Shown here: positions 13,809 to 41,847 of the stretch, one piece after another
Layout of the letters: each line of letters starts with the position of its first letter
Numbering within the stretch: position 1 is the stretch's first letter
Assembly (NCBI GenBank): GCA_026416125.1
Contig: JAOAFT010000018.1
Coordinates: 1 to 48,034 of the forward strand
DNA from: Bacteroidota bacterium
GTDB lineage: Bacteria; Bacteroidota; Ignavibacteria; UBA10030
Direction of reading: 5' to 3'
Length of the DNA stretch: 48,034 nucleotides
Translations under genes and position numbers: made by a program
Notes under the pieces: generated by a model
Databases searched by the model: none
What the model saw: the letters and a program-made list of their open reading frames with translations, nothing else
Told to the model about the DNA's origin: nothing

Positions 13809-13822
13809 TGTTACTACAACCT

Positions 13823-14503: not shown

Positions 14504-14554
14504 ACGTACACTCTAGTTGCGTGTAATATACAGAAGTCCGAATCGAATGGCAAT

Positions 14555-15280
14555 TTATAATTGCTCGAGTGTATTTACAATTGTACTGACACCGACAAGC
14601 GCTGCTGTTTCCGATCGGAGTCGCCGTTTACCAAGATTAACCACTAAACACCCACTTTGGTGTGCATGCTCAACTTCTTCATCAGTAAATCCACCTTCAG
14701 GACCAACAATGAAAAGTATCGAAGTAATTGGTGATGCTTCTCGTACAATCTGTGTTATCGTATTCGTGAAAGGTTGCTTTTCATGCGCAAGCATAACCAA
14801 CGAGTACTTTTGGAGATTGTTGAGAAGTGTCGGGAAATCCAGTACTGGTGCAATCCTCGGGAGCACACAGCGACCACTCTGTTTCATGGCAGAACGCGCA
14901 ATAAGTTGCCACCGTTCGATTGATGCTCGACGCACAACCGTCCGTGATGATGTAAAAGGGAGAATATCCGAAACACCTAATTCTGTTGCTTTTTCGATGC
15001 AAAAATCGAAGCGATTGGGATTTTTAAGGAGTGAAACTGCAAGTGCTACTGGCACTGGAAGCTCGTTGACATTTTGACTTACTGATACAACTGAACAGTA
15101 GACTTCTGTCCGTGTAATTCGTTCGATCTGTACAATGTACTGCATACCATTTCCAGGGGTAACAGTAATGTAGTCGCCAACCTGTTTCCGAGCTACACGG
15201 GCAATGTGTTTTGCCTCATCATGACGAATAACTATGTTATTCGGTGTACAATCTTGTTCGAAAGCAAAGTAGACATCCAT
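14555..15280 (-). CDS. rsmE: 16S rRNA (uracil-1498-N3) methyltransferase
   Basis: RsmE (241 aa) methylates U1498 of 16S rRNA using SAM; it is a SPOUT-class dimer with a trefoil knot. The N-terminal PUA-like domain contains HIARVARKQVGD. The SPOUT domain shows KNPNRFDFCIEKATELGV, the SAM-loop FIVGPEGGFTDEEVEHA and the knot motif LGKRRLRSETAALVGV. Normal length. It lies 15 bp after the barrel protein gene in the minus-strand run. Confidence 0.95.
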   Translation of the reverse strand: MDVYFAFEQDCTPNNIVIRHDEAKHIARVARKQVGDYITVTPGNGMQYIVQIERITRTEVYCSVVSVSQNVNELPVPVALAVSLLKNPNRFDFCIEKATELGVSDILPFTSSRTVVRRASIERWQLIARSAMKQSGRCVLPRIAPVLDFPTLLNNLQKYSLVMLAHEKQPFTNTITQIVREASPITSILFIVGPEGGFTDEEVEHAHQSGCLVVNLGKRRLRSETAALVGVSTIVNTLEQL

Positions 15281-15295
15281 GGAACAATGAGCTTC

Positions 15296-16600: not shown

Positions 16601-16710
16601 TATTCTTAGAACAATTGATATCAAAGGTGTTATAGAGTATCGTAAGAGGTAAAGGATATCAACATCATCTTTCAGTTCTTGTTGTACTAAAATCCTTTTC
16701 CTTCCACAAT

Positions 16711-17121
16711 TTATTGGATGAGACGTGTATATTCCATTGCAATGCACCGATTCATAATGACCTGCAAACCAAGGGATTCGGCTCGAGCAGCTTCAACTTC
16801 ATTTATAACTCCTAGTTGTAACCACAACACCTTTGCATTCGACGCCACAGCATCATCAACAATAGCTGCAACATCTTCTGGCTTCCGGAATACATCAACA
16901 ATATCAATCTCCTCTGGAATTGTTCGAAGCGTTGGGTAACAGTGATCACCAAAAATCGTTGTATAGTTTGGATTCACTGGAAATACCTTGTACCCAACTC
17001 TTTTTAGGAATTGATAAATCCTTCCACTATCACGCAATGGATTTTCTGATGCTCCAACAACTGCAATTGTTCTCGATGATGTAAGTATTGAATGGATGAG
17101 AGTATCGTTGTTTACTACCAT
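16711..17121 (-). CDS. CoA-binding domain protein (YccU-like)
   Basis: A 136-aa single Rossmann CoA-binding domain (CoA_binding_2), with SRTIAVVGASENPLRDSGRI, YKVFPVNPNY and the C-terminal GLQVIMNRCIAMEYTRL. Stand-alone relatives (E. coli YccU) bind CoA, but their role is not established. I start at the ATG at 17121, which has AAAGG ten bases upstream; an in-frame ATG at 17154 lies inside gcvP and lacks a site. It follows gcvP by 5 bp. Confidence 0.9.
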   Translation of the reverse strand: MVVNNDTLIHSILTSSRTIAVVGASENPLRDSGRIYQFLKRVGYKVFPVNPNYTTIFGDHCYPTLRTIPEEIDIVDVFRKPEDVAAIVDDAVASNAKVLWLQLGVINEVEAARAESLGLQVIMNRCIAMEYTRLIQ

Positions 17122-26546: not shown

Positions 26547-27059
26547 CTAATTTCCAAGTAACGTACGGAGTGCATCCCATCTGGGGTCTACATTCTCAAT
26601 TGTACAGTGACATTCTGTCATATTTTTATTCACTCCACACACAGGGCACAACCCTTTACAAGCTTCACTACAGAGAATTTTCTGTGGAACCGAGAGTATT
26701 AAAAATTGACGAACATCTTCGTCGAGATCAATGTACGTTGTGTCCTGTGCAATAAACTGCACTTCTACGCTTTCATCAATCTCTTCTATACTGTGGGTAT
26801 CCGAAACATACACAATGATATATTCTGTGTTCAGCCTTTGTTCAAACTCTTCCAAACACCGATCACACACTAACCGAGCATTGACCGTTGCCTGAACTCG
26901 TAAGAAAAGTTGTTTGCGAGTTTTCTCTAATGATGCACGTGCACCTACTTGGCCAATGTAATTAGGCTCTTCTAGCCCAATGGCAGACGGTAACGACGAA
27001 AAATCGTATTCATATGTACCTTCTGCTAATCCTGCAATATTTATCCGAAACTCTGCCAT
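26547..27059 (-). CDS. yceD: YceD/DUF177 family protein (23S rRNA accumulation protein)
   Basis: A 170-aa DUF177 protein. The family is required for normal 23S rRNA and large-subunit accumulation in bacteria and plastids; its gene is nearly always next to rpmF, as here. Visible features are the CDRCLEEFEQ motif in the middle and the C-terminal CSEACKGLCPVCGVNKN cluster, which resembles a metal site. A good promoter and a hairpin sit upstream, so this gene probably leads the rpmF-plsX-fab transcript. Confidence 0.92.
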   Translation of the reverse strand: MAEFRINIAGLAEGTYEYDFSSLPSAIGLEEPNYIGQVGARASLEKTRKQLFLRVQATVNARLVCDRCLEEFEQRLNTEYIIVYVSDTHSIEEIDESVEVQFIAQDTTYIDLDEDVRQFLILSVPQKILCSEACKGLCPVCGVNKNMTECHCTIENVDPRWDALRTLLGN

Positions 27060-27067
27060 TGTATCAT

Positions 27068-27095
27068 CCCAAAAGCTTTTCTCCGAAGCTTTGGG
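27068..27095 (-). promoter_or_regulatory. Hairpin in the yceD leader
   Basis: CCCAAA(A)GCTT and AAGCTTTGGG form a 10-bp stem with one bulged A and a 7-nt loop. On the minus strand it ends 8 nt before the yceD start codon, and its 3' arm contains the only ribosome-binding-like bases (GGGA). There is no T-run. It may lower yceD translation; function unproven. Confidence 0.45.
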
Positions 27096-27122
27096 TAATT
27101 CTGTTCTTTCAAAGTGCTATCC

Positions 27123-27151
27123 AATATACATAAAAGCTCTCTGAATATCAA
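27123..27151 (-). promoter_or_regulatory. Predicted promoter of the yceD-rpmF-plsX-fab operon
   Basis: On the minus strand TTGATA (27146-27151) and TATATT (27123-27128) have a 17-bp spacer. The start is predicted near 27116, giving a leader of about 57 nt containing the hairpin at 27068-27095. Confidence 0.6.
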
Positions 27152-27218
27152 TACACTATATGAAAATCCGATCCCATAGATTCAGAAAACATTTGCCCAG
27201 TTATTGAATCTCCTGGCC

Positions 27219-27247
27219 TTGACATTCACTTCCAAACTCTCTATAAT
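27219..27247 (+). promoter_or_regulatory. Consensus sigma-70 promoter of a 57-aa small gene
   Basis: TTGACA (27219-27224) and TATAAT (27242-27247) are separated by exactly 17 bp, an ideal promoter and the best match in the window. The expected start is near 27254, about 32 nt before the small ORF. Confidence 0.8.
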
Positions 27248-27285
27248 CCATAGTAGCTATCCATCAATTAATGAAAGGGGTTGCT

Positions 27286-27459
27286 ATGAAACAAAAGCGA
27301 TCTCTGCTCCATCCACATGCAAAACAAACTCAGTCACTCCAACGGAAACTTATACAGCAGCGATACAACACAACGTCGAACCTAAAAAATCCTAAACTCG
27401 TAAAAGTACTCCAAAGTGTAACAGCTGGGCATATTCGAGGTGGTCACTCTTACCACTGA
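27286..27459 (+). CDS. Small basic protein of unknown function (57 aa)
   Basis: I do not recognise this protein. It starts MKQKRSLLHPHAKQTQSL and ends AGHIRGGHSYH. It is rich in Lys, Arg, Gln and His, has no transmembrane segment and no cysteine, and is strongly basic. It is likely real because an ideal promoter lies about 40 bp upstream and AAAGGGG is spaced five bases before the ATG at 27286, better signals than most core genes here have. A start 15 bp earlier (MKGVAM) would overlap that ribosome-binding site. It is divergent from the yceD operon and opens the AT-rich island. A nucleic-acid- or ribosome-associated role would fit its charge but is only a guess. Confidence 0.6.
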   Translation: MKQKRSLLHPHAKQTQSLQRKLIQQRYNTTSNLKNPKLVKVLQSVTAGHIRGGHSYH

Positions 27460-27941
27460 AAGCACTAGCGAAAAACGAATCTGAATACATAAAAGCTTCA
27501 AGTGTAACTTTTCTGAGGCTGTTTCAATAATACAAAATATGTATTATTGTTCCATTTAACTTATAAGCTTTTCCATAAGGCAGAATAATATTTTATAGTA
27601 AGCTCTATTTGCTTAAAAATTGGCCCTAATACAATCATAAGTTACACTATTTTCATTACTGATAAGTACCATAAGTAAAAAATTTTCATGTACTTTGATC
27701 ATATAGGTTACCCAAGAGACTAACTTTTATATCTATGCATTCCGCCAAATATTTTTTATAAAAAACTCCATTCTCTACTCTTACGGCAAGAGGTTTTCCC
27801 ACTGAGAATCATCACAATGTATCAAAATATCAAAACAATGAGGATAATGTACAAACATTAACGAATCGACTACCCCATTTATAATTCAATAATAATTTCC
27901 AAACTATAGTGCGATAATACTAAGTGCTTACTAATAAGCAA
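27460..27941. other. AT-rich intergenic DNA, nothing recognised
   Basis: Strongly AT-rich with dense stops in every frame. There is no clear terminator after the small gene, no RNA gene and no gene remnant that I can recognise. Confidence 0.5.
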
Positions 27942-28226
27942 ATGAAAGGAAACACTAAACTTTATTATAAGATTGAACATTCAATAAAAAAGTGCTCTTT
28001 ACTAGATAAACTAAATAGTAAAAATTTCTTAACCTCTCACGGTTTTATCATTCAACAAGAATTATAATACGAAAGTGTACAGAGGAAAAATCGTGTTGAA
28101 ATATATGCCCCGCTTACTCGTCTTACGATCAGAACCGTTTTATATCCAAAAATTGGCAATAAAGAACTTGTTAGCATTATCAATGATCGATTAAAAAAAC
28201 CTGTTTCTATCTTGTTTCTATGTTGA
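27942..28226 (+). pseudogene. Broken ORF with one in-frame stop (unidentified)
   Basis: An ATG at 27942 opens a 41-codon frame beginning MKGNTKLYYKIEHSIKKCS that ends in TAA at 28065-28067. The same frame resumes at once and runs 52 more codons, including RVEIYAPLTRLTIRTVLY and NKELVSIINDRLKKP, to TGA at 28224. The second half has balanced, protein-like composition unlike the surrounding AT-rich noise, which suggests a formerly continuous gene of about 94 codons. I cannot assign a family. It could still be chance. Confidence 0.35.
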
Positions 28227-28400
28227 TTATGTTCTTCTCATATCACTAGGGAATATTTGAGAATTGTTGCAAAAATAAAAATAAAAACCTATTTTTAACG
28301 TATAAGTATTTTGTTCATCGTCTTTTGCATTTCCAAAAGTGCTAAATACAACATTCCTTTAAACTTTGAAGAAAATGTAAAAAGTTCTCTGTAAATCTAA

Positions 28401-29075
28401 ATGTTTAATTTTTTGTATAAAGTCAGATTTTCCCTCGCAAAATTATTTAAACCTAAAGGGAAGCGATCGTTTATTAGTTCAATCGTTCCAAAAGGGAAAG
28501 TACTGGACGTTGGTTGTGGAAATAACAGCCCTTATCTAACAAAATTACAAAGGCCAGATATCTATTATGTCGGTCTAGACATTCGTGATCACAATCAATC
28601 TTTAGGAACAAATTACGCAGATGAGTATATTGTAACAAATCCAGAAAATTTTCATGAAAAAATTGCATCTTTTGCTAATACGTTTGATGCAATTATCTCA
28701 TCACACAATTTAGAACATTGCAATAGCTATATAGATGTGACATTAGCAATGATTAAAGCTTTAAAGAAAAACGGGACCATATTTATAGCTTTCCCATGTG
28801 AAGAAAGTGTTAACTTCCCCCATAGGCACGGTTGCTTGAACTTTTATGATGATGTCACCCATAAAAACGTAATTCAATATTCATCATTCATTGATTTATT
28901 AAAGAAAAATGGAATAGGCATTCTCTTTGCAAAAAAAAGATACCGTCCTTTTTTGTTGCGTCTACTAGGATTTATTTGCGAACCAGTCAGTCGTTTACTT
29001 AACAAACAAATACCTGCAGTTACATGGGCATTCTATGGTTTTGAAACAATTATCATAGGGAAAAAATTGATATAA
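28401..29075 (+). CDS. Class I SAM-dependent methyltransferase
   Basis: A 224-aa Rossmann-fold methyltransferase (Methyltransf_11/23 type). Motif I is VLDVGCGNNSPYL (about residues 35-47), the acidic end of strand 2 is YVGLDIRDHN, motif IV is FDAIISSHNLEHC, and GTIFIAFPCEES follows. The C-terminal hydrophobic stretch (LLRLLGFICEPVSRLL) may sit against the membrane. Proteins of this build often modify cell-surface sugars or lipids, but the substrate is unknown. It is isolated in an AT-rich island with no ribosome-binding site before the ATG and A/T-biased codons, unlike the flanking core genes; acquisition by transfer is likely. Confidence 0.85.
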   Translation: MFNFLYKVRFSLAKLFKPKGKRSFISSIVPKGKVLDVGCGNNSPYLTKLQRPDIYYVGLDIRDHNQSLGTNYADEYIVTNPENFHEKIASFANTFDAIISSHNLEHCNSYIDVTLAMIKALKKNGTIFIAFPCEESVNFPHRHGCLNFYDDVTHKNVIQYSSFIDLLKKNGIGILFAKKRYRPFLLRLLGFICEPVSRLLNKQIPAVTWAFYGFETIIIGKKLI

Positions 29076-29669
29076 AACATTATGATGTTTATATGATAAC
29101 AAAGTTTGCGTCTTATTTTTTTCAGTCCAACGTAGTAACAACATAAATAACAATACATGTATTTATTCAATATTTGAGTAACAAGTTATATAATCAGTAC
29201 TTCATGTAGGTGCAACAGTCAAATTACATATGAATACAGCCAAATATAAGTCTTTTACTTCATAGTGATATATTGAAAGAATTCTATAACAATTTATTGT
29301 TTCTATCATCAATCCAAATGCAATACTAAGTCCTTCAAGCAAGTGTATTCAAGGGATTCGTAATATTCAATAAACTCAAGCTTTGTGAGCAATAATTGCT
29401 ATTGTAATTTTTTAATTATTATTCAATGGTATTGAACCAACACAAATAATTTCTATGTAGTTCTATTTTATCCATCTTATATATCTAACTTCTCTAATTT
29501 CAGAAGTGCACGACCAAAAATAGAATTTATGTTATAGCACTTTGTAAGTTTCAATTACTATTTTATTTTTCAACCATTCCCGATTAACATCTGCAAGAGG
29601 GGAACAATACAATTTCAAAATAACTAAAAGTGATACGTCGGTACTAGATAGAACTATGCAACCTATTTT
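29076..29669. other. AT-rich intergenic DNA, nothing recognised
   Basis: A very AT-rich gap between the methyltransferase and the end of the surface-protein cluster. A 6-bp AT hairpin (29075-29090) follows the methyltransferase stop but lacks a T-run. No gene or RNA is seen. Confidence 0.5.
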
Positions 29670-31778
29670 TTAATTATTTACATTTACTGTTACCATTTCC
29701 GACTGACCGCCGTCCGATGTCAAAACAAGAATACCGTAAGTGCTTCGTCCACGTGCAGGATTAGTGTCAGTTGCAGAACGAGCATTCGCTTTCAGCGACC
29801 CATACTCTTTGAATTCACCATTCCCCACCGCTTTATAAAGAACAAACCAGTACTCACCCTGCTCTTTCGGCAAATATTTCCAACGGAGTGTTACGGTGTT
29901 TGTCTTCCGGTCGTACGTTGCGGTCAATTGCTGAACGGAAGAGCGTTTGCCAGTATCATAGGGACGTGCTGCAACAGGTACAGCTTCCTCGGATCGTAGC
30001 CCAGAGGAATCGACGCTTACAAGTGTATAGATGTACATCTCTCGTTGTTTTACCCGTGTATCAATGTACTTTGAAACAGTGGCTTTCAGAGAATCGAGCA
30101 CCTTCCATTGGGCTATTTTCTCCTCACGCCGCAGAAGAAGCTGATGTGATACATCTTTCGAAACACTGCAGTGCCACGTTAGCTGCACAGAGGAATCTGT
30201 AGCAACGACATCACGGAACACAGGTGCACTCGGTGGTACAACATCGGGTCGTTGGAGTGTTAGTATTTCAGAGAATGCTGAATGCTGGTACTGTTTATCA
30301 ACGGCAGCAATTTTGTAATATAATTTTTTTGTCAGTGTCGAAAGGTTCACAGAATCAATGTACACAGTGTCGGTGTGAACGTGTCCCGTCAGTGGTGTGA
30401 AATCATGGGTGGGATCGTTCGCATAGAAAACACGGTAGCCAAGGATGTTCCGTTTCTTCACTGGTTGCCACCAGAGTGTTACTTTACCATTGGAATGTAT
30501 TTTGCCTCGTAAACCTTTTGGAGGTGGTGGCGGCAATGAATCAATGAGAGCAATGTACACTGGAAGAGAGAAGGCATAATTTCCTGCAGTATCAACTGCT
30601 GCAACAGCATAGTATGCTTCATCGTTTTCAGTGAGTACATCAATAAATTCATGCTGAGTGGCTGGAAGTGGGTTTGGTGTGCGGAGTACCATACTATCGA
30701 GCGTAGCAATGCTGCGAGTAATAACAAACCCTTTGAAGTCCTTTGGTACAACACTCTGCTCCCACGTAAGTTTTATACGTGTCGGTGAAAGTTGTCGGGG
30801 TGTTGCAACAATCGGCGCCGGTGGAGGAGTCAGATCGCGAGAGAATGCGGTTACTTCTATTGGCTTACTGAAGTCACCGAATGGTGTTACTCCAACCAAA
30901 CGATATCTGTACTTGCGGTAGTTAACAGTTGCTGTATCAATAAAACATGGCGATGCGCCATCGTGCAGGGTGGAAATTTGTGCTACAACAATTGGGACAG
31001 TATTCATACGAGAAAAGGTTTTCCCATTGTCAGCCGAACGATAGACGTAGTAGCCAGAGAATCCCAGTGGAGCACTGACACTCCAAAACAGCTTGATTAT
31101 TCCATCACCACTTTCTGCTCGGAATCCTAACGGAGGATCAGCCGGTGGTGTTTCTTTCGCTTCGATCATAACGTACGCTGTGTCGAACGAATAGTCGGGC
31201 GTTTGTACAGCAACGTACACTTTATACACATACCGTTCGCCACGCCGTACTTTTGTATCGACAAAGCGTAATCCAAGTGCCTGTGCTGTTACCGCATCAT
31301 TGTCGGCAGCATAGAGTGCAAACGAAAAGCGATTCGTCAATTCGTTTGCAGCATCACTCAGCACAGCAGCAGCATTCTGGTTTGTTGCTTGCGGTACGAA
31401 TCGTTTCCCATAGACTGCCTGAACAGCAATTGCGGAAAAGTCGTTCGTTGGTCCGGCATACTGCTTCCATTCTTCCAGCGAAAGTGGCTTTATAGGACGA
31501 TTGACAAGGGGAGTAAAGTGACTTTCTTCAACACCTTTTACCGGATCGATAGTTGCTCGTTCAACAATGTACCCAAGAGAATTTGCAATCACCCATCCGC
31601 CAGGAGTATCGGGCGCCCACCTCAACACGATTGAATCAGGAGCCGAACGCGCAAGAAGTTTCAACGCAGCAAACCGACGATTTGCCGATTCCTGCGCAAA
31701 CACGAATGTGCATGCAATGATACTAAGAATAATTGTGTGAACAAGAATTTTTTTCCCACAGCAAGAATCGTTCTTCAT
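29670..31778 (-). CDS. Exported multi-fibronectin type III domain protein
   Basis: A 702-aa protein with a signal peptide (KKILVHTIILSIIACTFVFA, cleavage near AQES). Six Fn3-like beta-sandwiches can be recognised by their openings and Trp strands: SAPDSIVLRWAPD near residue 40, SGDGIIKLFWSV, LSPTRIKLTWEQS, SNGKVTLWWQPV, ATDSSVQLTWHCS and KTNTVTLRWKYLP. They are spaced about 95-100 residues apart over the C-terminal 500 residues. There is no catalytic motif, anchor or T9SS-type C-terminal domain. I start at 31778 (AAGGCGG upstream); the longer frame to 31829 overlaps the barrel gene. It is the third gene of a likely surface operon and may act as an adhesin or scaffold for its partners. Confidence 0.85.
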   Translation of the reverse strand: MKNDSCCGKKILVHTIILSIIACTFVFAQESANRRFAALKLLARSAPDSIVLRWAPDTPGGWVIANSLGYIVERATIDPVKGVEESHFTPLVNRPIKPLSLEEWKQYAGPTNDFSAIAVQAVYGKRFVPQATNQNAAAVLSDAANELTNRFSFALYAADNDAVTAQALGLRFVDTKVRRGERYVYKVYVAVQTPDYSFDTAYVMIEAKETPPADPPLGFRAESGDGIIKLFWSVSAPLGFSGYYVYRSADNGKTFSRMNTVPIVVAQISTLHDGASPCFIDTATVNYRKYRYRLVGVTPFGDFSKPIEVTAFSRDLTPPPAPIVATPRQLSPTRIKLTWEQSVVPKDFKGFVITRSIATLDSMVLRTPNPLPATQHEFIDVLTENDEAYYAVAAVDTAGNYAFSLPVYIALIDSLPPPPPKGLRGKIHSNGKVTLWWQPVKKRNILGYRVFYANDPTHDFTPLTGHVHTDTVYIDSVNLSTLTKKLYYKIAAVDKQYQHSAFSEILTLQRPDVVPPSAPVFRDVVATDSSVQLTWHCSVSKDVSHQLLLRREEKIAQWKVLDSLKATVSKYIDTRVKQREMYIYTLVSVDSSGLRSEEAVPVAARPYDTGKRSSVQQLTATYDRKTNTVTLRWKYLPKEQGEYWFVLYKAVGNGEFKEYGSLKANARSATDTNPARGRSTYGILVLTSDGGQSEMVTVNVNN

Positions 31779-31788
31779 CGAATCCGCC

Positions 31789-33411
31789 TTACAGGTTAAT
31801 TGAATATTGAACATTTCCATAGAGTTCATTGTAATTTTTTTGAATCACGCCATCACCACGAAATGAATTATTCGTTAGGTAGCAGGCAACCGTACCGTAG
31901 TTGCCAAATGTATAACCAGCATTTACACGAAACACAATTTGAGATGATTTCTGTACTGCCGATATGAAGTTCACACCAAGACTAAATGAAGTCGTCACTC
32001 TGTTCTCCAAAAACTGTTTGCCAACGGCTTCACTGACGTGAATAATGCTCGCCGTAGAAGAACTCATTATTGCTTTATTGTAGAGAACTGTTGTCGTCAA
32101 AGAAAGCGTTGTCGGAAATAAAAGAATGTACGTAGCATTAATTGAATGCGTTCGTGAATCGGAGAGAGCCGTAGTATACACATTTTTATCGGATGAATTT
32201 TGATAGCTATATGTTACCAGTACAGTATTGGAACCACTGAATGCGTCGAATGTTATGCGCGGAGAGAGCGTGAACGCATCGAAAACATTTGAGAGCCGGA
32301 GAGTATCGTTTTTATGTTGCGAACTGATTTGGTTTCGGTTGTAACTTGCATCAATACCGAGAGCATGTGACACCTGCCAGCTTGCACCGAGCATTCCTGT
32401 CCACCGACGCGTTGTTGTTGTTCGCGTTTGTCGAAGATTGTTGTACCGTACCCCTACTTTCGAACGAAGCGAAAGTTGGTTATCGAAAAAGCGTGCGCGT
32501 GGACTTATGGAAATCTCCAGCAGATCGTTCGGCATCAATGCGTAACCAAGCGTTGTAAAGCCGGGGCCAACCCACCGCGTACTGAGTGTCACCGACCAGT
32601 AACGAGATGGCGTAACACTAACGTTGAGTTTTGCTGCTCCATCAATACATGTCGAAGCATTAGGATGAAAGAGGAACGAAGGTACGTTAATACCGGCATC
32701 AATTGTGTCAGCTTTAGTGTTAGAAGAAAAAAGTGATACACCAACTTCACCATCAAGCGTTACAATCTCACCAAACCGTGCACCAAAATCGATGGAACCA
32801 ACGAGATTTTCCTGTGGATGTACGGTAGCAGAATCTGTCGTAACTGATAGAGAATCATCGATGGCATGGAAAAGATTAACATTGACATACGTATCCGAAA
32901 GATTTCCGTAACCGAACGAGAGGGCGTATGCCGTTTGCTTATAAACTTCCGGTGCAAAACTTACTCTGTCAGGTTGTACTGCTTTCCTCGTACGACCGTA
33001 GAACGCTTTAATTCTAAAATCGGCAGGAGCAATTTCGAATCCGGCACCGAGCACCCGAAGATCACCAAACGTGAAGTCTGAAATCCGCGTCGAAAAATAT
33101 CCCGCATGGAGCGTTAGCCAGTTCGAAATCCGAGGACTTACTCCAAACTGGTTGAATGGTTGCTGAAACTGCGCTTGCTTCGTTGAAAAGTACAATTCGA
33201 AGGGAAGCTCTACAATCTCGTACAGTGATACCGTACTGCGAATAATTCCATACTGAAGACTCCTCGGTTGACGAGCTTCGATACCACTGGCACTATAGAA
33301 ATTGCTTGTGAGTGTTGCAGACGTACGCAGGCTAACAAATGGATTTCCCTCTTGTCCGTATCCAAGCACAACAGCACAAATCGATAACATACTCAGGATT
33401 GTTCTTTTCAT
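31789..33411 (-). CDS. Probable outer-membrane beta-barrel protein of unknown function
   Basis: A 540-aa protein with a signal peptide (MKRTILSMLSICAVVLGYGQ). The rest is a run of alternating polar/hydrophobic strands with aromatic girdle residues and short turns, for example RVLGAGFEIAPADFRIKAFYG, RWTGMLGASWQVSHALGIDA and TVLVTYSYQNSSDKN, a pattern typical of 20-plus-stranded outer-membrane barrels. The last strand (ELYGNVQYSINL) is amphipathic but ends in Leu, not Phe. No plug domain or TonB box is seen, so it is not a TonB-dependent receptor. It lies 14 bp after the giant gene and 10 bp before the Fn3 gene; an anchor or secretion pore for them is an inference. Confidence 0.75.
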   Translation of the reverse strand: MKRTILSMLSICAVVLGYGQEGNPFVSLRTSATLTSNFYSASGIEARQPRSLQYGIIRSTVSLYEIVELPFELYFSTKQAQFQQPFNQFGVSPRISNWLTLHAGYFSTRISDFTFGDLRVLGAGFEIAPADFRIKAFYGRTRKAVQPDRVSFAPEVYKQTAYALSFGYGNLSDTYVNVNLFHAIDDSLSVTTDSATVHPQENLVGSIDFGARFGEIVTLDGEVGVSLFSSNTKADTIDAGINVPSFLFHPNASTCIDGAAKLNVSVTPSRYWSVTLSTRWVGPGFTTLGYALMPNDLLEISISPRARFFDNQLSLRSKVGVRYNNLRQTRTTTTRRWTGMLGASWQVSHALGIDASYNRNQISSQHKNDTLRLSNVFDAFTLSPRITFDAFSGSNTVLVTYSYQNSSDKNVYTTALSDSRTHSINATYILLFPTTLSLTTTVLYNKAIMSSSTASIIHVSEAVGKQFLENRVTTSFSLGVNFISAVQKSSQIVFRVNAGYTFGNYGTVACYLTNNSFRGDGVIQKNYNELYGNVQYSINL

Positions 33412-33425
33412 AGAATCTTACTTTT

Positions 33426-36400
33426 CTAATAGGTAAATGGTTTTGCTATTTCGATGATCGTTGCATCGACTGCTTGACAACCATTGTAGTTATAGAAAAA
33501 TCCAATCGGATATGTTCCGCGATACATTAATTGGTAACTCCGGTTGACGATAGCATTTAACCTCGTACGGTCACTGTTGGTTTTTGAAATGAACGGATTT
33601 GACAAAACAGCCAATGCCCGTTCTTTTACGGTAAGATAGTCTGTAGGAACGATAGTGCCGTGATTGTAGAGAACTTTCAAAACGATCGAGTTTCCACTCG
33701 TTTTCATATTTTGAGATGATGATTGCGCAGACGTACTCTTGCTTTGTGTTGACGATGTGCTGGAAGGTCCTACTACAAACAGTGGAAGATTCTGTTCGTA
33801 CCCGATACTCCCAAATGGCACACCAAGCTCCATCGCCGATTTTTCATACTGAAGTTGTCCGTTCCAGAATCCTCGGTTTTTCATCCACATTACTTCGTCG
33901 TAGATCGCTGGATTTACGAATTGTGTATGCCATTGCGATGTACGTTGCCATGCGTTGAGCTTCACAAGAGGACCAAATTTCTGAATCGCTCCGCATGATG
34001 TCCACAAAACAGGAACACAATCATATCGATCGAAGGGCTCTGTCCCACTGAATGTGATAGCTTGGCGTTGGAACATCCCACTCGTTTCTGTCTCAATGGT
34101 TGTTTGTCGGAATGTACTCAATTTCTCCTGCAACGTGTTGAAACGACTTGTTTTGAATGTATATGCATAGAGTACTCGCTCACCAAACTGATGCGTCGGT
34201 GATTGAACCATGCGTTGACCAAGTAGTACTGTTGAACCTTGCACGTTGTATACTTCACGTTCACGAATAGTTTGCTGCCCTGACGGTACGCCACCGCTGC
34301 TCTGCATTCGTTCCATTCCCTGCACCAAACGTGCAAGATTCGGATCGTTTGGTACTTCCTTCCGAATTATGAGAAGTTGGTACGTTGTATTCCGGAGAAG
34401 TGTTGGAATGTCAAACACAATAGTTGCAGACCCTCCATTGTAGGTAAACGGAACATCGAGAGCTGGTTGTGTACGATCTTCTGGTACAAAGCGAGCAATA
34501 AACTGTACATCGTAATTCTCTCTTGGCTGGAAAAGGTATGCCATTCCTGTCTTCAATTGTATTCTTCCTGAGCGACATTCACCTTGTAAGAAGTATTGTT
34601 GTCCTTCTATTGGATAGGTATATGCAATATGTTGTGGTTCAATTTTATCAGGCGCAGTACCAGTTACGAACACAACTGCTTCCTGTTGTTTGATAACCGA
34701 GCCGTCTTTTCGTTTTGCTGGTGACCACGATCCATTGATAAGCTCCTCACCATACGCCGACGCAGAAAATCGATATTGATGCTGGCTTCCCAACATTTCG
34801 TTCGGTTTATAGAACGCTGCAAAACCATCGGGTGATTCGACAATATTTCCTCCAATTGTTTTACCGGCCGACAGATCCTGCAACGATAATGGATCGATCT
34901 TTACACGGAATGTTCGAATTGTTGCCTTCCCGCTCCCATCCGGCATTTCTTCGATATCGAATGGTGTGTTAAGTTTGAAATTGAAAGCAACCTGTGGTTC
35001 AATGGCAACATCAACATCGCGTTGACCATTTGTGGGATCAAGCTCCGAGATGATATCGATCCGCGACAACGGATTTTCTGCCATCATCTGACATTGTTCA
35101 CCAATACTAAATCGATACTCACAACGTCCTTTAATAGCACCCCCAAGTACACTATAGTTCCCGCTCACCATTCCTTTTATCCATGTTGGATTCGGTGCAC
35201 CACCCTGAAGCACTGAGGCAAGTGTAAGATCAAGTATTTTTTTATCACCCTCATAGAAGTACGTCTCGATATGCATTCCTATGACAGCGTTGAGGTACGC
35301 GTAAATTTTTCCAGATGCGTACCACCCATTGATGCCGAGTGGCGTAGAGGTTCCCTCGCAGGTTACACCATCGTACTTCAGTAACGACATATCGAACCCA
35401 TAGAGTGCAGAAATATCACCGGTAAAAACAAGGTACTGTTGCTTTCCCGTTTGGAATCGCTGGCTGGCACCGAACGCAAACCCGTTTCCCTCACGAATCT
35501 GGATGCTGCGGTTTTGTACAAGTCCTTGGTACTGCTGCAGCTCTGGTGGTAGCTGTGGCGTTGGCAGTTGCATTCCTGTCATTATGTATGCATTTGCCTG
35601 AAGCCAGTTTGAAAGGCGGAGGCTGCACGGCTGTGCCGGTTCACCAATCTTGATGTACCACAGATTTGGATCGAAGTGGATCACAGCCCGTCCACCACCT
35701 GTAAGAGGATCAGCATTCACGATACGAACATTGAGATTACCATCAAGAGTTCTGGTTGGAACATAGTAGGTAAGATTGACATCCGAAAGGATTTTTGCTT
35801 TCTGTCGTTCTGCTATACCGCAGAGGATATAGCCACTGCCCGTGAGCGACATACTACTTAGTCCACCGGTGCTTGAAAATTGAGCTTCTAACCCAACATC
35901 GCCATTGAATGATTCTGCACTTGGATGAGTACCAACGACGAGCGTACCAGAAAATCCGAACGATGCGTTCCTATCCGGCGCATACTGAAATCCAGACCCT
36001 GTGCCAGTGGATGATGTACTACTATCGGTAGATCCAAGCAATGCGCTTGCATCGACACTTCCACTTCGCCTCATACCGTACCAGGCACCTCCCGCAAAAC
36101 CATAAACACCGAAGCCTGTGAACAACGGTGCTCCAGCTGGAAGAAGTGCTTTCGCATCAACGTACCAGTAGCGATGATCATTCACCGCACCGAACTGAGC
36201 AGTTGCCCCTACCATCAGTTTTTCTAAAAATGTTGCCCTCACAGTTCCACGGAAACCATTGCCAAACGTTGGGTCATTACTAAAGAGATTCAATCCTCCT
36301 TGAACCTTCACAGCACCTACATCAGCATCAATCCCGATTGAATCTAACTCAACACCATCGTACACAAAGCGTTGAGGACCATCTTCAGAAGCAAGGGCAG

Positions 36401-39400
36401 TCCATATCTTCAGCGTCGTACCACCTCGCACGCCGTTCGTTCCTGATTGTAAATTAACATCTACTGTGAATTTCAACGCTGCCGCAAATCTCCCATGACG
36501 TTCCCCCGTTTCAATATCAATATTGGTAATTGTTACAGGAAATCCCGCGACACTATGCTGTGGACTGGCAAATTCATATCTCCCTCTTTCGAAGCGTGGT
36601 GTTGCTGTACGCACCTTCCAGTCAGAAAATTCGATTCCCTGTAATCCAATCTTCGAAAGAAAGTCTATCGATGAGTCAACCTTCAACACACCGCTGAAGT
36701 TCGCTTCGCCAAGAAAACCGTCTCCTCCATAGGTCATGGTAATTGATGACGAAGAAGCAAGATTGAGTGTACACTTCAAACAGGAAAGTGGAATTGGAAT
36801 ATCGGTACGAGGATTAATTGAAAACTGATACTGGAGACCTTTCTGTGCCGTACTACCACTATCTGGCGCAGGACGTGAAATGGTTCCAACGTACTCAAAG
36901 AGTGTATCTGTTATTGATATCTTAATACGTCCTTTCATTTCGCTATGCCGCAACGAACTCGAAACCATTTCGATTCGGAGTGTATCGATACTTCCACCCC
37001 ATCCACCAAAATTGACTCTGGGATAGTGAATTACATTTTGAGCGTAGAGCTTGCCGGTAATTCCTGTACCGTCAATGATAACATTCGTTAATGCAAGTTC
37101 AGGATTTACTCCATCGAAGGTTCGCAAACGATCGGGCAATCGTATCGTAGCACTCTTGAGAAAAAAACCTTTCCACTGTGCTGAAGTATTTGTGTACGAT
37201 TCTGGGAATGTTATTCCTTCCGGATTCCGAGACGTTGAAAAATCGAAGACAAGACTTGGAATGTTTAAGGTAAACCCAGGTAACTGTGCAAATTCGCACT
37301 CATTGAGTGATGAAGTCATCATCCATTGCCAACCGTTTCCATTTTTCTCTGCTCGACCTTTGAACAGTGCTTTCACGCTCGACGAGGAATCCCGCGTATT
37401 CACAAGCCACGAGCGTGGAAAATCCACTTCGGCAGAAACAACCAGATGACTGAATCCTTTGCAATCCCATGCAGCGAAGGTACCTGAATCTGAAAGTGTC
37501 GATGCTTTGAAGAGTATACTCCAGCTCCCTTCCCGCCGATACCCGAAATCCCGTGCAAGGTACAACACAGCTTTGTCCATCCCAGCAAGACCAGCTTTGT
37601 GGAAACAGATATTCTTTGCGCCTAAACCAAAGCCAACATCAGGTCCCAGCGCTGGCAAGTCAACCCACGTTGCAGCATTGAGTACTGCTTGCGTCGGTGT
37701 AAACATCATACCGAGAATAGCAATAACAGTAGGATACCCATCGATCGCTTTGTCGAATCCAAGTGGCAATGTTGTTGGTGAGGTATTGATAAGTGCACTT
37801 ACAAGCCGACCTGCACTTTTCGATTTCTCATAGATGCTCTTTAATATCCCATCGGCGAGACCAAGTACTTTGCCTTCGTACTCTTCTTTGCTCGCCATCG
37901 AGTAGCCAGCAGCAGGGTCAACTTTAGCAAATATTGCTCCTTCGTATACCTGATTCTCGCTGTTTACTTTGATATTGTTAAACTCAACACGAATTGGAGC
38001 GCGCAAAAATTGTACATCGACAGTCCCTTCACCAGAGAGCGATGCAGGGGTTCCGGACACTGAAGTAAGTGTTACGGTAAACTTACCGATCGATAGAACA
38101 CTATCCTTCGCAAGTGTTTGTGTCCCCGGTGTTTTGTTCGTTGGCACGTCAGCAAAACAATCACCTGGGCATGCATTGTTCTCATCTTCACCAACTTTTA
38201 CCTGAAAGAGACCATCAGCGCTTACAACCGAGTCCAGCGCACACACACCACCATCAGCCCGTACGGAATCTCTGTTGTACTTAAGCATGAAATTCCAGAC
38301 ATAGGTGGCATTAGAATCCGTAGAAAATGTTTTTGACGTTGAATCACTGTTTAGAAGATTAATGTCATAGCGCGTAAATCCTTGCATATCTGTTGAGTAT
38401 TGGTAGAGCGCTCCATTCCCTGAAAAACTTGTATCAAGAACCGGTGTTGATTGTTTTGCATCCGTAATGTTCTGCGTTGGTGAATTCATCTTCCAGATCC
38501 GGAACCGACCACCAGTGATTGCTGACTTCCGAATGACTGGCTTCACTGAAACTGCAAACGTTGGGTTGAGACCACTTGTCCACACGCCATTGCTTTTCGG
38601 TTGTTCAATGAACATGTCAAAACACATTCGTGCACTATCAGGAACAAGACGGAATGAATCAACTGCGGAAACTGCATACGTTGCAGTATGGTTATCAAGA
38701 AATCGAACTCGCCAGTAATATTGACCTGTATCGCGCAGCGGAGAAAAGCGCTGACGTATAGGCTGAAACAATGCTTCACACCGATCGCCCGATGTATATG
38801 GTACGCCTTCTGGTATCCGTACAAATACTTGTGAAAGGAGTGAATCGAATGTCTTACGCTTCGAAAGCTCAAAAGCAACATTCGCTGTTGCAGTACTCAG
38901 TGCATTATATCCATTGAAGTACGGATTCCTCAGCAGCTCTGGATATAAAAAATTCAACACACTCGGTTCTTGCACCCTGAACGATACTTCGATGGGGGTT
39001 CCACTGGTAACAACTGAATTTGTAGCGCACTCCATCTCCCTTGGCTTTTTCAATCCAATCGTAAACGATGTTTCTGACGAGCGTGCTGTCAACGTTTGCC
39101 CATTGTGCTTTGTAACTGTTGCTTCTACACGCCAAAAGTATTGTTTTCCCATTGCGAGTGTTTGCATCCATGAAGGAAACGTACCGGCATCATCGACATT
39201 ACAGAGCAATATCCCTGCTTTTTCCCCATCCACCAACTGCTGGCTTTGTCGTGGTCCCTGTGGAAAACGGATTGTTCGTACATGGTGAATTGTGCTTGAT
39301 GAATTTTCGGATCGCACAGTAAGACGAACAATAACAGAACGAATATCATCGTCACACGGAGCAAGCCGAATAAAAAGTTGTGGTGTCGACCATGGCAACG

Positions 39401-40307
39401 TATCATTCTGTGCCGGATAGATGTGTTCCAAGGTAAGTGTGTTGTCTTCCGAAACCGTTTCCCGAAGTCGGAACGTTGCAAGCTCACTCTTTCCCTGATT
39501 CTTTGTTGCTGGTTTTCCCGTTGCATCGAATGCTTGCACAATCCACACAAAGCGGTTAACGTTCTGATAGTAATCGAAGTGGAGTTCCCCGGGCAATGGT
39601 TGAAGAAAACTTGTTTGAATACCACTTTTTTCAAACAGTACTGGGTTCCGCTCTAACGCGTCTCGTGGTGATTGACCCTCCCACACTGGACATATTTTTA
39701 TTTTGTAGTTAACCGTGCTTCGTGTAAAATTGTAACTTGTAACCGGAACCCATCGGAATATTGGAAATGGTGTTTGAAGAACTTCATCCTCTGTCGGCGA
39801 GACTATCTGTGGTGGTTCGGGTACCAATGTTTGAATGGTTGTGCAGTACTCATCGCCAAGCGTTATATTTACACCAAACTGATCATACACCGAGATACAC
39901 AACTGGTAGGTTCCTTCGGGAATTGATCCGGATGTTATAAGTGTTCTTTCGACGTCCCTGTCATATTCAAGAGCATTCACATTAATTATTTGTGAACCAG
40001 TCAGAACGATCTGCGATGGTATAGCACCAGCTGCCGGAATATATACTCGTGGTATATAAGCACTGTTCTCCTTTGTTCTGAGAAGAACTTTGCCGTTGTC
40101 ATCCATTACAATTATTCTCACAGTAGCACTTGGATAGTTGTTCGCTGTAGCATTCGTTATTACAAGTTGAAGTACATTCGGGTCTGCTATCCATGCACTG
40201 AGTTCATATGGAAGAGGCATTTTGAGGAGTACTTGGAGATTGACTTGCGAATAAGTACTTGGAAGAACTACTACTAGAAAAATGAAGGGTAGAATACTCT
40301 TACGCAT
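33426..40307 (-). CDS. Giant exported protein (2293 aa) of unknown function
   Basis: By far the largest gene in the window. It has a signal peptide (ILPFIFLVVVLPSTYSQ) and no transmembrane helix after it. Residues about 20-160 form an N-terminal beta domain (IPEGTYQLCISVYDQFG). Residues about 165-560 hold Fn3/Ig-like units (PPQIVSPTEDEVLQTPFPIF; QYFWRVEATV). Near 715 is a Cys-containing linker (NACPGDCFADVPTNK). Residues about 740-1700 are long repeated beta-strand/turn segments rich in Gly, Ser, Thr and aromatics. Near 2185 is a Ser/Thr/Gln-rich linker, followed by a C-terminal domain containing RTRLNAIVNRSYQLMYRG. There is no protease, LPXTG or T9SS-type sorting motif. The start (ATG at 40307) has AAAGGG seven bases upstream, but this sits in an 11-bp RNA hairpin. 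Partial similarity to Bacteroidota TANFOR-type surface proteins is possible but unverified. Confidence 0.85.
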   Translation of the reverse strand: MRKSILPFIFLVVVLPSTYSQVNLQVLLKMPLPYELSAWIADPNVLQLVITNATANNYPSATVRIIVMDDNGKVLLRTKENSAYIPRVYIPAAGAIPSQIVLTGSQIINVNALEYDRDVERTLITSGSIPEGTYQLCISVYDQFGVNITLGDEYCTTIQTLVPEPPQIVSPTEDEVLQTPFPIFRWVPVTSYNFTRSTVNYKIKICPVWEGQSPRDALERNPVLFEKSGIQTSFLQPLPGELHFDYYQNVNRFVWIVQAFDATGKPATKNQGKSELATFRLRETVSEDNTLTLEHIYPAQNDTLPWSTPQLFIRLAPCDDDIRSVIVRLTVRSENSSSTIHHVRTIRFPQGPRQSQQLVDGEKAGILLCNVDDAGTFPSWMQTLAMGKQYFWRVEATVTKHNGQTLTARSSETSFTIGLKKPREMECATNSVVTSGTPIEVSFRVQEPSVLNFLYPELLRNPYFNGYNALSTATANVAFELSKRKTFDSLLSQVFVRIPEGVPYTSGDRCEALFQPIRQRFSPLRDTGQYYWRVRFLDNHTATYAVSAVDSFRLVPDSARMCFDMFIEQPKSNGVWTSGLNPTFAVSVKPVIRKSAITGGRFRIWKMNSPTQNITDAKQSTPVLDTSFSGNGALYQYSTDMQGFTRYDINLLNSDSTSKTFSTDSNATYVWNFMLKYNRDSVRADGGVCALDSVVSADGLFQVKVGEDENNACPGDCFADVPTNKTPGTQTLAKDSVLSIGKFTVTLTSVSGTPASLSGEGTVDVQFLRAPIRVEFNNIKVNSENQVYEGAIFAKVDPAAGYSMASKEEYEGKVLGLADGILKSIYEKSKSAGRLVSALINTSPTTLPLGFDKAIDGYPTVIAILGMMFTPTQAVLNAATWVDLPALGPDVGFGLGAKNICFHKAGLAGMDKAVLYLARDFGYRREGSWSILFKASTLSDSGTFAAWDCKGFSHLVVSAEVDFPRSWLVNTRDSSSSVKALFKGRAEKNGNGWQWMMTSSLNECEFAQLPGFTLNIPSLVFDFSTSRNPEGITFPESYTNTSAQWKGFFLKSATIRLPDRLRTFDGVNPELALTNVIIDGTGITGKLYAQNVIHYPRVNFGGWGGSIDTLRIEMVSSSLRHSEMKGRIKISITDTLFEYVGTISRPAPDSGSTAQKGLQYQFSINPRTDIPIPLSCLKCTLNLASSSSITMTYGGDGFLGEANFSGVLKVDSSIDFLSKIGLQGIEFSDWKVRTATPRFERGRYEFASPQHSVAGFPVTITNIDIETGERHGRFAAALKFTVDVNLQSGTNGVRGGTTLKIWTALASEDGPQRFVYDGVELDSIGIDADVGAVKVQGGLNLFSNDPTFGNGFRGTVRATFLEKLMVGATAQFGAVNDHRYWYVDAKALLPAGAPLFTGFGVYGFAGGAWYGMRRSGSVDASALLGSTDSSTSSTGTGSGFQYAPDRNASFGFSGTLVVGTHPSAESFNGDVGLEAQFSSTGGLSSMSLTGSGYILCGIAERQKAKILSDVNLTYYVPTRTLDGNLNVRIVNADPLTGGGRAVIHFDPNLWYIKIGEPAQPCSLRLSNWLQANAYIMTGMQLPTPQLPPELQQYQGLVQNRSIQIREGNGFAFGASQRFQTGKQQYLVFTGDISALYGFDMSLLKYDGVTCEGTSTPLGINGWYASGKIYAYLNAVIGMHIETYFYEGDKKILDLTLASVLQGGAPNPTWIKGMVSGNYSVLGGAIKGRCEYRFSIGEQCQMMAENPLSRIDIISELDPTNGQRDVDVAIEPQVAFNFKLNTPFDIEEMPDGSGKATIRTFRVKIDPLSLQDLSAGKTIGGNIVESPDGFAAFYKPNEMLGSQHQYRFSASAYGEELINGSWSPAKRKDGSVIKQQEAVVFVTGTAPDKIEPQHIAYTYPIEGQQYFLQGECRSGRIQLKTGMAYLFQPRENYDVQFIARFVPEDRTQPALDVPFTYNGGSATIVFDIPTLLRNTTYQLLIIRKEVPNDPNLARLVQGMERMQSSGGVPSGQQTIREREVYNVQGSTVLLGQRMVQSPTHQFGERVLYAYTFKTSRFNTLQEKLSTFRQTTIETETSGMFQRQAITFSGTEPFDRYDCVPVLWTSCGAIQKFGPLVKLNAWQRTSQWHTQFVNPAIYDEVMWMKNRGFWNGQLQYEKSAMELGVPFGSIGYEQNLPLFVVGPSSTSSTQSKSTSAQSSSQNMKTSGNSIVLKVLYNHGTIVPTDYLTVKERALAVLSNPFISKTNSDRTRLNAIVNRSYQLMYRGTYPIGFFYNYNGCQAVDATIIEIAKPFTY

Positions 40308-40310
40308 TTT

Positions 40311-40364
40311 ATGTCCCTTTCGTATGTCTTGCTCATTTCAATATTGTATTCGAGAAAGGGACAT
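40311..40364 (-). promoter_or_regulatory. RBS-sequestering hairpin in front of the giant gene
   Basis: On the minus strand ATGTCCCTTTC (40364-40354) is the exact complement of GAAAGGGACAT (40321-40311), with a 32-nt loop. The second arm contains the whole AAAGGG ribosome-binding site of the 2293-aa gene. Folding would block initiation, so this looks like a translational switch or thermosensor-like leader. No T-run follows. Confidence 0.65.
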
Positions 40365-40424
40365 CCCACGAGCGAGATCCCCACGTACCCTTCATCGAAA
40401 TAAAGAACAGCGAGACTATGCACT

Positions 40425-40453
40425 AATATAGAGTACCATACCGCCACAGTCAA
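40425..40453 (-). promoter_or_regulatory. Predicted promoter of the surface-protein cluster
   Basis: TTGACT (40448-40453) and TATATT (40425-40430) on the minus strand have a 17-bp spacer. The start near 40418 gives a leader of about 110 nt that contains the RBS-sequestering hairpin. Confidence 0.6.
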
Positions 40454-40735
40454 GCATTCTCTGTGATGAGGAAAACACCCAAAGTGGTAACACTATTATC
40501 TTGAAAATGGATAAAATTTTCGGTTGTCCGATAGCCTCCTCAGCTACACACACAGTATACAGTCTTCCTTTACACATTTTTTGTAGGGTGAAGCTTGAGA
40601 CACGAGAATTAATATTCTCACTTACAAAAGTTGTGCACGGATTGATATGTTTGTGAGTTTACATCAACTACTATTCAAAATTGACAAAATCTATACCTAC
40701 CCCAAACACTTAGTTCCCACAAGTAACATACCGAT
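40454..40735. other. Intergenic DNA between the surface cluster promoter and the decayed protease
   Basis: No intact gene. The protease remnant ends at 40736. No terminator or RNA gene is apparent. Confidence 0.45.
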
Positions 40736-41780
40736 CTAGTGCGGATTAATTCGAATAGTATCTTTTGATACACTCCGTCTTTGGTGTTCCAAATGCCTTG
40801 TAAAAAATGTGGATATATCGTACTCTCGCTTTCGAATGTATTCGTGTTGTGATTCAAGAACTGAGAGAATTGCATCGCTTGAAATAATTTGTGTAACACC
40901 ATACTCAATATGTAACCCTCGATTGATATATATTTCACCAGTGTATGGTACTTCAGGATCGTAATCGATTGTTGCACCTTCACGTACCGGAGAAAGGTAG
41001 TACACAGCACGTGCTACAACCAAGTGTACAATGCTTACAAGTTCAAAATTCGGTATTCAATCACGAATCGCAAACCCAGGCACCCCATTAAACCCTCTAT
41101 TCACAACTGCCTCAATGAAAAATGAGTTGTATCGATCTTTCTTTGAATTACTCACATTATTCCTTTTGTAACAAGACACTGACCAGCTGGGTAACCAAAC
41201 ACGTAGACAAAACTCACCCACTCTAATTCGTGTGCTTTACCAAAAGAATACCGTAGTACGTAAATGGGAAATTCAGTTAATACACTCACTCCAACGAATG
41301 CAACATCACGATGATTCTCCTGAACAAGAATCTCGACTTCACTCAAGCCTGCTATACCTGCAACACAATTCGCTTGACGTTCTTTTATGGATATTGTACG
41401 AATATAAGGTGTTAGTTGTCGTTGTTCGTTTTAGTAAAACCTTATGAGAGTTTCAGGGAAGGAAACAACATGTGCACAAGTTACCAACTAGACATGTGTT
41501 TGTGTGGCACCGAGAATCGTTGCAGTACCTGAGGATGCACGATTGAGATAAATTACCTTTGTAGCAAATTATAGTGTTTCTCCAATATGAATTTTATCTA
41601 TTGTCACTTGAGTTTCTAGGGGAAACACATACGTACGATAATAGGCAACACAACTAATCATTTTAGTAGAAAAAGAAACTTCTTCTAATTGTTGTGAGCA
41701 ATCTCGCGGTATGGGAACCGTGAGTCATATCGACCATTTGACAAGTTTAGATAAACTTCATAGTAAGGAGTACTGCAGGA
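40736..41780 (-). pseudogene. Decayed trypsin-like (HtrA/S1-type) serine protease
   Basis: One minus-strand frame can be followed from about 41780 to 41152, then a second frame to 40736. It reads in order: KMISCVAYYRTYVFPLE, VIYLNRASSGTATILGA, LVTCAHVVSFPETLIRFY (His-loop, compare TAAHV), HRDVAFVGV (Asp-loop), WVSFVYVFGYPAGQCLVTKGI, FIEAVVNRGFNGVPGFAIRD and VPYTGEIYINRGLHIEYGV. Defects: stop codons at 41725-41727, 41569-41571, 41488-41490, 41431-41433 and 41057-41059, and a frameshift around 41140-41155. The catalytic-serine motif (expected GxSGGP) reads FNGVPG, without serine. His and Asp motifs survive. The N-terminal extent is uncertain. Confidence 0.75.
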
Positions 41781-41847
41781 TGTGAGCGATTCTACTATAA
41801 ATACACTGCTGCTGCCAATTTTCCAACCACGTCATTACAATCCCACC

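What the first reader, a model, noticed from the sequence alone, without database searches (positions are those of the whole stretch)
29670..40307. Three-gene surface cluster led by a 2293-aa protein: possible undescribed exported system
Seen directly: three same-strand genes with 14- and 10-bp gaps, all with signal peptides. They encode a giant beta-rich protein, a probable outer-membrane barrel and a six-Fn3-domain protein. No T9SS-type C-terminal sorting domain, LPXTG or protease motif is visible. The cluster lies between an AT-rich island and a decayed gene, as accessory loci often do. The inference is that the barrel anchors or exports the two large partners as one surface machine (adhesion, motility or substrate capture). 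I cannot name a described system with this layout.
Basis: partly seen in the sequence, partly recalled or inferred. Interest (0 to 1): 0.62.

Follow-up and report, generated by a model that had tools for sequence, protein, structure and literature searches.

The report
TANFOR–barrel–Fn3 surface gene module
These three neighbouring genes are a conserved but uncharacterised bacterial surface module, in which a giant protein with a recognisable head domain travels with its own large outer-membrane pore and a partner matched to its body; it matters because toxins with the same head domain are known whose exit route from the cell is not.

Summary
In detail: a 2293-aa giant, a 540-aa outer-membrane barrel and a ~702-aa Fn3 protein form one minus-strand operon. 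They belong together: 29 of 33 fully visible loci with the same fused giant carry all three genes on one strand, in three gene orders, across the Bacteroidota. The giant's N-terminus is a divergent TANFOR domain, known from TANFOR polymorphic toxins of Bacteroidetes (PMC7073777). The window protein is not itself such a toxin: its C-terminus is conserved and no immunity-like gene follows. The barrel is predicted as a large, empty pore of about 24-26 strands, nearest in fold to MtrB and the FimD/PapC ushers. Trees show two evolving units: TANFOR head with barrel, and passenger with Fn3 protein; passengers have been swapped behind the same head and barrel, once within one genome. I infer that the barrel docks or exports proteins through the TANFOR head while the Fn3 protein handles the passenger. 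Export through the barrel, rather than anchoring after T9SS export, is unproven. It is not the sprCDBF gliding operon, and none of the three has a T9SS sorting domain. I file it as a new variant of a known kind.

The parts
33426..40307 (-). Giant gene, 2293 aa: signal peptide, TANFOR head, Ig-like stretch, core, C-terminal domain
   Evidence: 46% identical full-length relative in G032
39408..40253 (-). Divergent TANFOR head of the giant (residues 19-300)
   Evidence: TIGR02542 sub-threshold hit at this place, 16.6 bits; profile of fused heads matches TIGR02542-positive proteins at 136-231 bits
35013..38177 (-). Conserved core (passenger) of the giant (residues 711-1765), all-beta; encoded as a separate protein in Flavobacteriaceae and Chitinophagaceae
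   Evidence: model pLDDT 83.5
33429..35012 (-). C-terminal domain of the giant (residues 1766-2293), conserved with its closest relatives and absent from some others
31789..33411 (-). Outer-membrane barrel gene, 540 aa, about 24-26 strands, no plug domain
29670..31778 (-). Fn3 protein gene, 702 aa (ORF may start at 31829)
   Evidence: relatives beside the giant or core in nearly all loci

Best explanation
The operon encodes a modular cell-surface system. All three proteins enter the periplasm by Sec (signal peptides seen, export inferred). The giant consists of a TANFOR head and a large beta-rich passenger. The head is recognised by the co-evolving large barrel, which holds the giant at, or passes it through, the outer membrane (inferred from co-evolution and pore size; no complex was modelled). 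The Fn3 protein acts on the passenger, for example as assembly partner, stalk or periplasmic chaperone, because it changes whenever the passenger changes (co-variation shown, role inferred). In this genome the passenger is a conserved structural core, so the product is most likely a fixed surface structure (adhesin- or filament-like) and not an injected toxin. In Flavobacteriaceae the same families occur as separate genes, with core and Fn3 protein in one locus with TANFOR proteins of variable C-terminus, so there the set may be the delivery or display platform of TANFOR toxins.
For: Gene company: 29 of 33 fully visible fused loci have barrel, giant and Fn3 gene on one strand, in three orders. 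Head homology. Barrel: confident model, best folds MtrB and FimD/PapC. Head-barrel unit: patristic distances correlate 0.62, against 0.22 (head-Fn3) and 0.25 (barrel-Fn3). Passenger-Fn3 unit: Fn3/barrel score ratio at least 1.23 in 27 core loci, at most 0.80 in 6 non-core loci, while barrel scores do not differ; passenger and Fn3 families cluster alike; passenger type changes 3 times on the Fn3 tree and 6 times on the head and barrel trees. Within genome G435: barrel 210/268/239 bits, Fn3 553/554 bits with the core and 70 without.
Against: No complex was modelled or measured. Co-evolution of head and barrel may reflect linkage without contact; AU tests on the short head alone are not decisive. 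The p-values ignore kinship. The core has no convincing solved relative, so its job is a guess. L089, L099 and L102 have no barrel next to the giant on the same strand. Surface location is inferred.
Confidence: 0.6

Rival explanations
1. T9SS exports the giant, as proposed for TANFOR toxins, and the barrel is only a surface anchor or shuttle-like carrier, comparable in role to PorP/SprF for type B substrates.
For: This genome has SprA and about 53 CTD proteins; all 35 module-bearing genomes tested have SprA; TANFOR neighbourhoods are enriched in T9SS substrates (PMC7073777).
Against: No CTD on any of the three proteins. SprA is present in 77% of sampled phylum genomes and 118 of 122 genera, so co-occurrence is weak evidence. 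The barrel matches no NCBIfam family, PorP/SprF included.
Confidence: 0.3
2. The giant is itself a polymorphic toxin of the TANFOR class.
For: TANFOR head and signal peptide; TANFOR proteins in Aquimarina-type loci have C-termini that diverge sharply between close relatives, with small ORFs after them.
Against: The window giant keeps roughly 26-60% identity to its four closest relatives along its length, with no abrupt C-terminal break; no known toxin domain; the next genes are the barrel and Fn3 genes, not a small immunity-like ORF.
Confidence: 0.06
3. Unrelated surface genes that lie together by accident in an accessory region.
For: Patchy distribution and an AT-rich flank.
Against: The same three genes recur together in 29 of 33 loci with permuted order, and their trees are coupled in pairs.
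Confidence: 0.04

Closest known systems
TANFOR-containing polymorphic toxins (TIGR02542; Jana, Salomon and Bosis 2020, PMC7073777)
   Same: Homologous N-terminal head, signal peptide, T9SS-bearing Bacteroidota host, Fn3 proteins nearby
   Different: Conserved C-terminus instead of variable toxin, no immunity-like gene, head fused to a core that is a separate protein in the Flavobacteriaceae and Chitinophagaceae loci; the paper's text does not mention a barrel
Two-partner secretion (TpsA/TpsB)
   Same: Works-like only: a large exported protein with an N-terminal recognition domain, encoded beside its own barrel
   Different: No haemagglutinin-type TPS domain, POTRA or ShlB match in Pfam; barrel of about 24-26 strands where TpsB has 16 (own knowledge)
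T9SS type B substrate with PorP/SprF-like shuttle (PMC12618676)
   Same: Secreted protein genetically paired with its own outer-membrane barrel
   Different: No CTD on the giant, no match of the barrel to a PorP/SprF model
MtrB porin and FimD/PapC ushers
   Same: Barrel size class and best fold matches
   Different: No CxxCH haem motif in the three proteins, no usher domain by Pfam; only about 10-12% sequence identity
sprCDBF gliding operon of Flavobacterium
   Same: In Flavobacteriaceae the core-Fn3 pair often precedes SprB-repeat proteins
   Different: None of the module profiles matches SprC, SprD or neighbours in three genomes

Membership tests
TANFOR polymorphic toxins | N-terminal TANFOR domain (homology) | tested here: met
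   Head profile matches TIGR02542-positive proteins over its length, 136-231 bits; sub-threshold TIGR02542 hit at residues 21-143
TANFOR polymorphic toxins | TIGR02542 curated cut-off of 67 bits | tested here: not met
   16.6 bits; but none of 395 phylum genomes reaches the cut-off
TANFOR polymorphic toxins | Variable C-terminal toxin domain | tested here: not met
   No toxin domain; no abrupt C-terminal break against the closest relatives
TANFOR polymorphic toxins | Adjacent immunity gene | tested here: not met
   Next genes are barrel and Fn3 gene at 14 and 10 bp
TANFOR polymorphic toxins | Host carries T9SS | tested here: met
   SprA 820.6 bits, about 53 CTD proteins; not discriminating
T9SS substrate | C-terminal sorting domain (type A TIGR04183, type B) | tested here: not met
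   No CTD match on the three proteins in NCBIfam; no TIGR04183 hit on contig C9
sprCDBF gliding operon | Core or Fn3 protein homologous to SprC or SprD | tested here: not met
   No module profile matches these operons at E 10 or better in three Flavobacterium-group genomes
Two-partner secretion | TPS domain on the giant, POTRA/ShlB barrel | tested here: not met
   No Pfam match
PorP/SprF shuttles | Match of the barrel to a PorP/SprF family model | tested here: not met
   No NCBIfam family at E 1
MtrAB electron conduit | Multihaem cytochrome partner | tested here: not met
   No CxxCH motif in the three proteins or in the window's other listed ORFs
Barrel-exported (two-partner-like) TANFOR proteins, proposed here | Export of the giant depends on the barrel | not testable with these tools
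   Needs deletion mutants or a modelled complex

The most novel reading that the evidence does not exclude
The TANFOR head is a targeting signal for a dedicated large outer-membrane pore: a two-partner-like export route, independent of T9SS, that carries interchangeable passengers (structural cores here, toxins elsewhere), each with its matched Fn3 partner.
Probability: 0.3. Interest if true: 0.82.

Novelty: new variant of a known kind. Interest (0 to 1): 0.6.

Why it matters
How TANFOR toxins leave the cell is an open question; the only proposal in the searchable literature is T9SS, by association. This work names a specific alternative or additional component (a co-evolving large barrel) and two partner families (core and Fn3 protein), and makes the question testable by single gene deletions. 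It also suggests that the family reaches well beyond toxins, as a conserved three-gene surface module across the Bacteroidota, including Ignavibacteria and Kapabacteria.

Tried and rejected
Direct annotation: no Pfam match above its cut-off for the giant or barrel, a single fn3 for the Fn3 protein; no NCBIfam, PHROGs or PADLOC match for the giant or barrel. The viral-contig scan found nothing. PDB sequence searches with the core, barrel and giant profiles found nothing significant. Core fold search: only partial, high-rmsd matches to LptD, ApoB100, MtrB and porins (Foldseek TM about 0.1), read as generic long beta-meander; no function inferred, other folds not excluded; no match at E 0.001 in the viral library. 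Core = SprC/SprD: suggested by the core-Fn3-SprB-repeat gene order in Flavobacteriaceae, tested and rejected. SprA co-occurrence as evidence for T9SS export: discarded because the background is 77% of genomes and 118 of 122 genera. First impression that three Flavobacterium-group TANFOR loci have a core-type Fn3 protein without a core: removed by finding the core further along the same locus. The 40.3-41.8 kb remnant looked protease-like by eye, but the three fragments tried match no Pfam family. Domain scans of the variable TANFOR proteins in split loci found only Fn3-like and similar domains, so calling them toxins rests on variable C-termini, the small ORFs after them and the published class.

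Full report
OBSERVATION. Signal peptides are visible by eye. The flanks are an AT-rich stretch with a methyltransferase (28401-29075) and a stretch of broken short reading frames. The window is contig C9 of a 2.41-Mb draft genome (98.65% complete). It belongs to the same order as genome G032, whose contig matches that of 'Ignavibacteriae bacterium BY39' in length and position.

THE THREE GENES BELONG TOGETHER. Direct family searches say almost nothing. In 61 genomes (own and relatives) the giant, barrel and Fn3 protein recur, largely in the same genomes. A profile scan of public genomes found 136 relatives, of which 80 were kept, from Ignavibacteria, Kapabacteria, Chlorobiota, Bacteroidales, Flavobacterium, Chitinophaga, Aquimarina and Marinilabilia. 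Of 33 fully visible loci with a fused giant, 29 have all three genes on the same strand, in the orders barrel-giant-Fn3, giant-Fn3-barrel and giant-barrel-Fn3; the window has the last. Some of these loci are near-duplicates between collections. Permuted order with preserved company argues for a working unit, not a frozen block.

WHAT THE GIANT IS. TIGR02542 (TANFOR) gives one sub-threshold hit in this genome, at about residues 21-143 of this protein (16.6 bits, E 0.009), and the best-ranked hits in relatives fall on its homologues. The 67-bit curated cut-off is not a useful test here, since none of 395 phylum genomes reaches it. A profile of the heads of 38 fused giants matches TIGR02542-positive proteins outside the profile over its length at 136-231 bits. 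So the head (19-300) is a divergent TANFOR domain. Behind it lie an Ig-like stretch, a strongly conserved core (711-1765) and a C-terminal domain. In Flavobacterium, Chitinophaga, Aquimarina and some Bacteroidales the core is a separate protein without a head, usually directly followed by the Fn3 protein, and in many of these loci a separate TANFOR protein lies nearby. The core is predicted all-beta (pLDDT 83.5, pTM 0.53) with no convincing solved relative.

THE BARREL. AlphaFold2 gives a confident model (pLDDT 88.1) with 25 strands by DSSP and no plug or extra domain. The best solved folds are MtrB (Z 20.7 over 446 residues, rmsd 6.0) and the FimD/PapC ushers. This indicates a pore of about 24-26 strands; the exact number is not settled. 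Fold similarity does not transfer function: no haem motif is present and no usher domain was found.

TWO EVOLVING UNITS. Some loci have the same head and barrel families but another passenger (L067, L069, L071, L164, L169, L170). With profiles made only from core loci, the barrel scores the same in both groups (p 0.80), but the Fn3/barrel score ratio is at least 1.23 in 27 core loci and at most 0.80 in 6 non-core loci (p-values ignore kinship). Passenger families and Fn3 families cluster alike: L067/L069/L071, and more weakly L164/L170. Genome G435 is an internal control: three loci with barrel scores 210, 268 and 239, and Fn3 scores 553 and 554 with the core but 70 without. On trees of 38 loci, head and barrel distances correlate at 0.62, head-Fn3 at 0.22 and barrel-Fn3 at 0.25; passenger type changes six times on each of the first two trees and three times, the minimum, on the Fn3 tree. 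The non-core locus L164 and core locus L180 of the same genome are sisters for head (97) and barrel (100), and the Fn3 tree rejects that pairing (AU p 0.008). L067 sits with core loci for head and barrel, which the Fn3 tree rejects (p 2.5e-6), while the barrel tree rejects grouping L067 with L069 (p 0.002) and L164 with L170 (p 0.0002). AU tests on the short head alone are not decisive (0.17, 0.56); the groups were named after the trees were seen. The simplest reading is that the passenger has been exchanged behind a stable head-barrel pair, with the Fn3 partner following the passenger.

MECHANISM. Shown: gene company, head homology, coupling of head with barrel and of passenger with Fn3 protein. 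Predicted: a large empty barrel. Inferred: the barrel recognises the TANFOR head and anchors or exports the protein, and the Fn3 protein works with the passenger. The window's passenger shows no abrupt C-terminal break against its closest relatives, so a fixed surface structure is the more likely product here. In Aquimarina-type loci the barrel gene lies 11-23 bp before a TANFOR protein whose C-terminus differs sharply between close relatives, with small ORFs after it, as expected for the published toxins (PMC7073777).

COMPARISON WITH THE KNOWN. The only directly relevant paper found is Jana et al. 2020. It describes TANFOR toxins, notes Fn3, SprB-repeat and CTD proteins as enriched neighbours, and proposes T9SS export. 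Its text does not contain the word 'barrel'. The searchable library is open-access only, so unpublished or closed work cannot be excluded. T9SS: this genome has SprA and about 53 CTD proteins, but none of the three proteins has a CTD, and SprA is too common in the phylum to be informative. The sprCDBF gliding operon was tested in three genomes and does not match (the operons were recognised by their SprB-repeat giants).

VERDICT. Real, conserved, and linked to a known domain; the barrel-coupled modular architecture appears undescribed in the literature I could search. New variant of a known kind, interest 0.6.

Noticed in passing
window 40330-41800 (minus strand): Remnant of a gene broken into short open stretches in several frames just upstream of the giant; it looks protease-like by eye but three fragments match no Pfam family.
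   Followed up: partly
window 27000-29700: AT-rich stretch (31-34% GC) with a lone SAM methyltransferase at 28401-29075, possibly acquired.
   Followed up: no
L127:3-2498, L129:343-2835, L143:72-2540, L181:6197-8653, L182:8044-10500: In several Flavobacteriaceae loci the barrel protein is ~820 aa, with a C-terminal extension of about 270 residues without a confident Pfam match (one scanned); absent from the window's barrel.
   Followed up: no
L114:16534-24086, L121:16535-23960, L143:16595-24188: Tandem arrays of similar ~400-aa secreted proteins directly after the Fn3 gene, one with a weak SprB-repeat match.
   Followed up: no
L073:7957-12252 and 12279-17093 (G008): A short TANFOR-headed protein (315 aa) followed by two very large genes (1604 and 1431 aa) and a barrel relative; possibly the giant split into several genes.
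   Followed up: no
L099 (3660 aa), L102 (3741 aa): Fused giants about 1400 residues longer than the window's, from a Chlorobiota MAG and an 'Armatimonadetes' MAG (perhaps a mislabelled bin); neither has a barrel directly beside it on the same strand.
   Followed up: no
window 9426-10811 and 10837-12987 (minus strand): An apiosidase-like glycoside hydrolase next to an M23 peptidase protein; ordinary neighbours with no evident link to the module.
   Followed up: no
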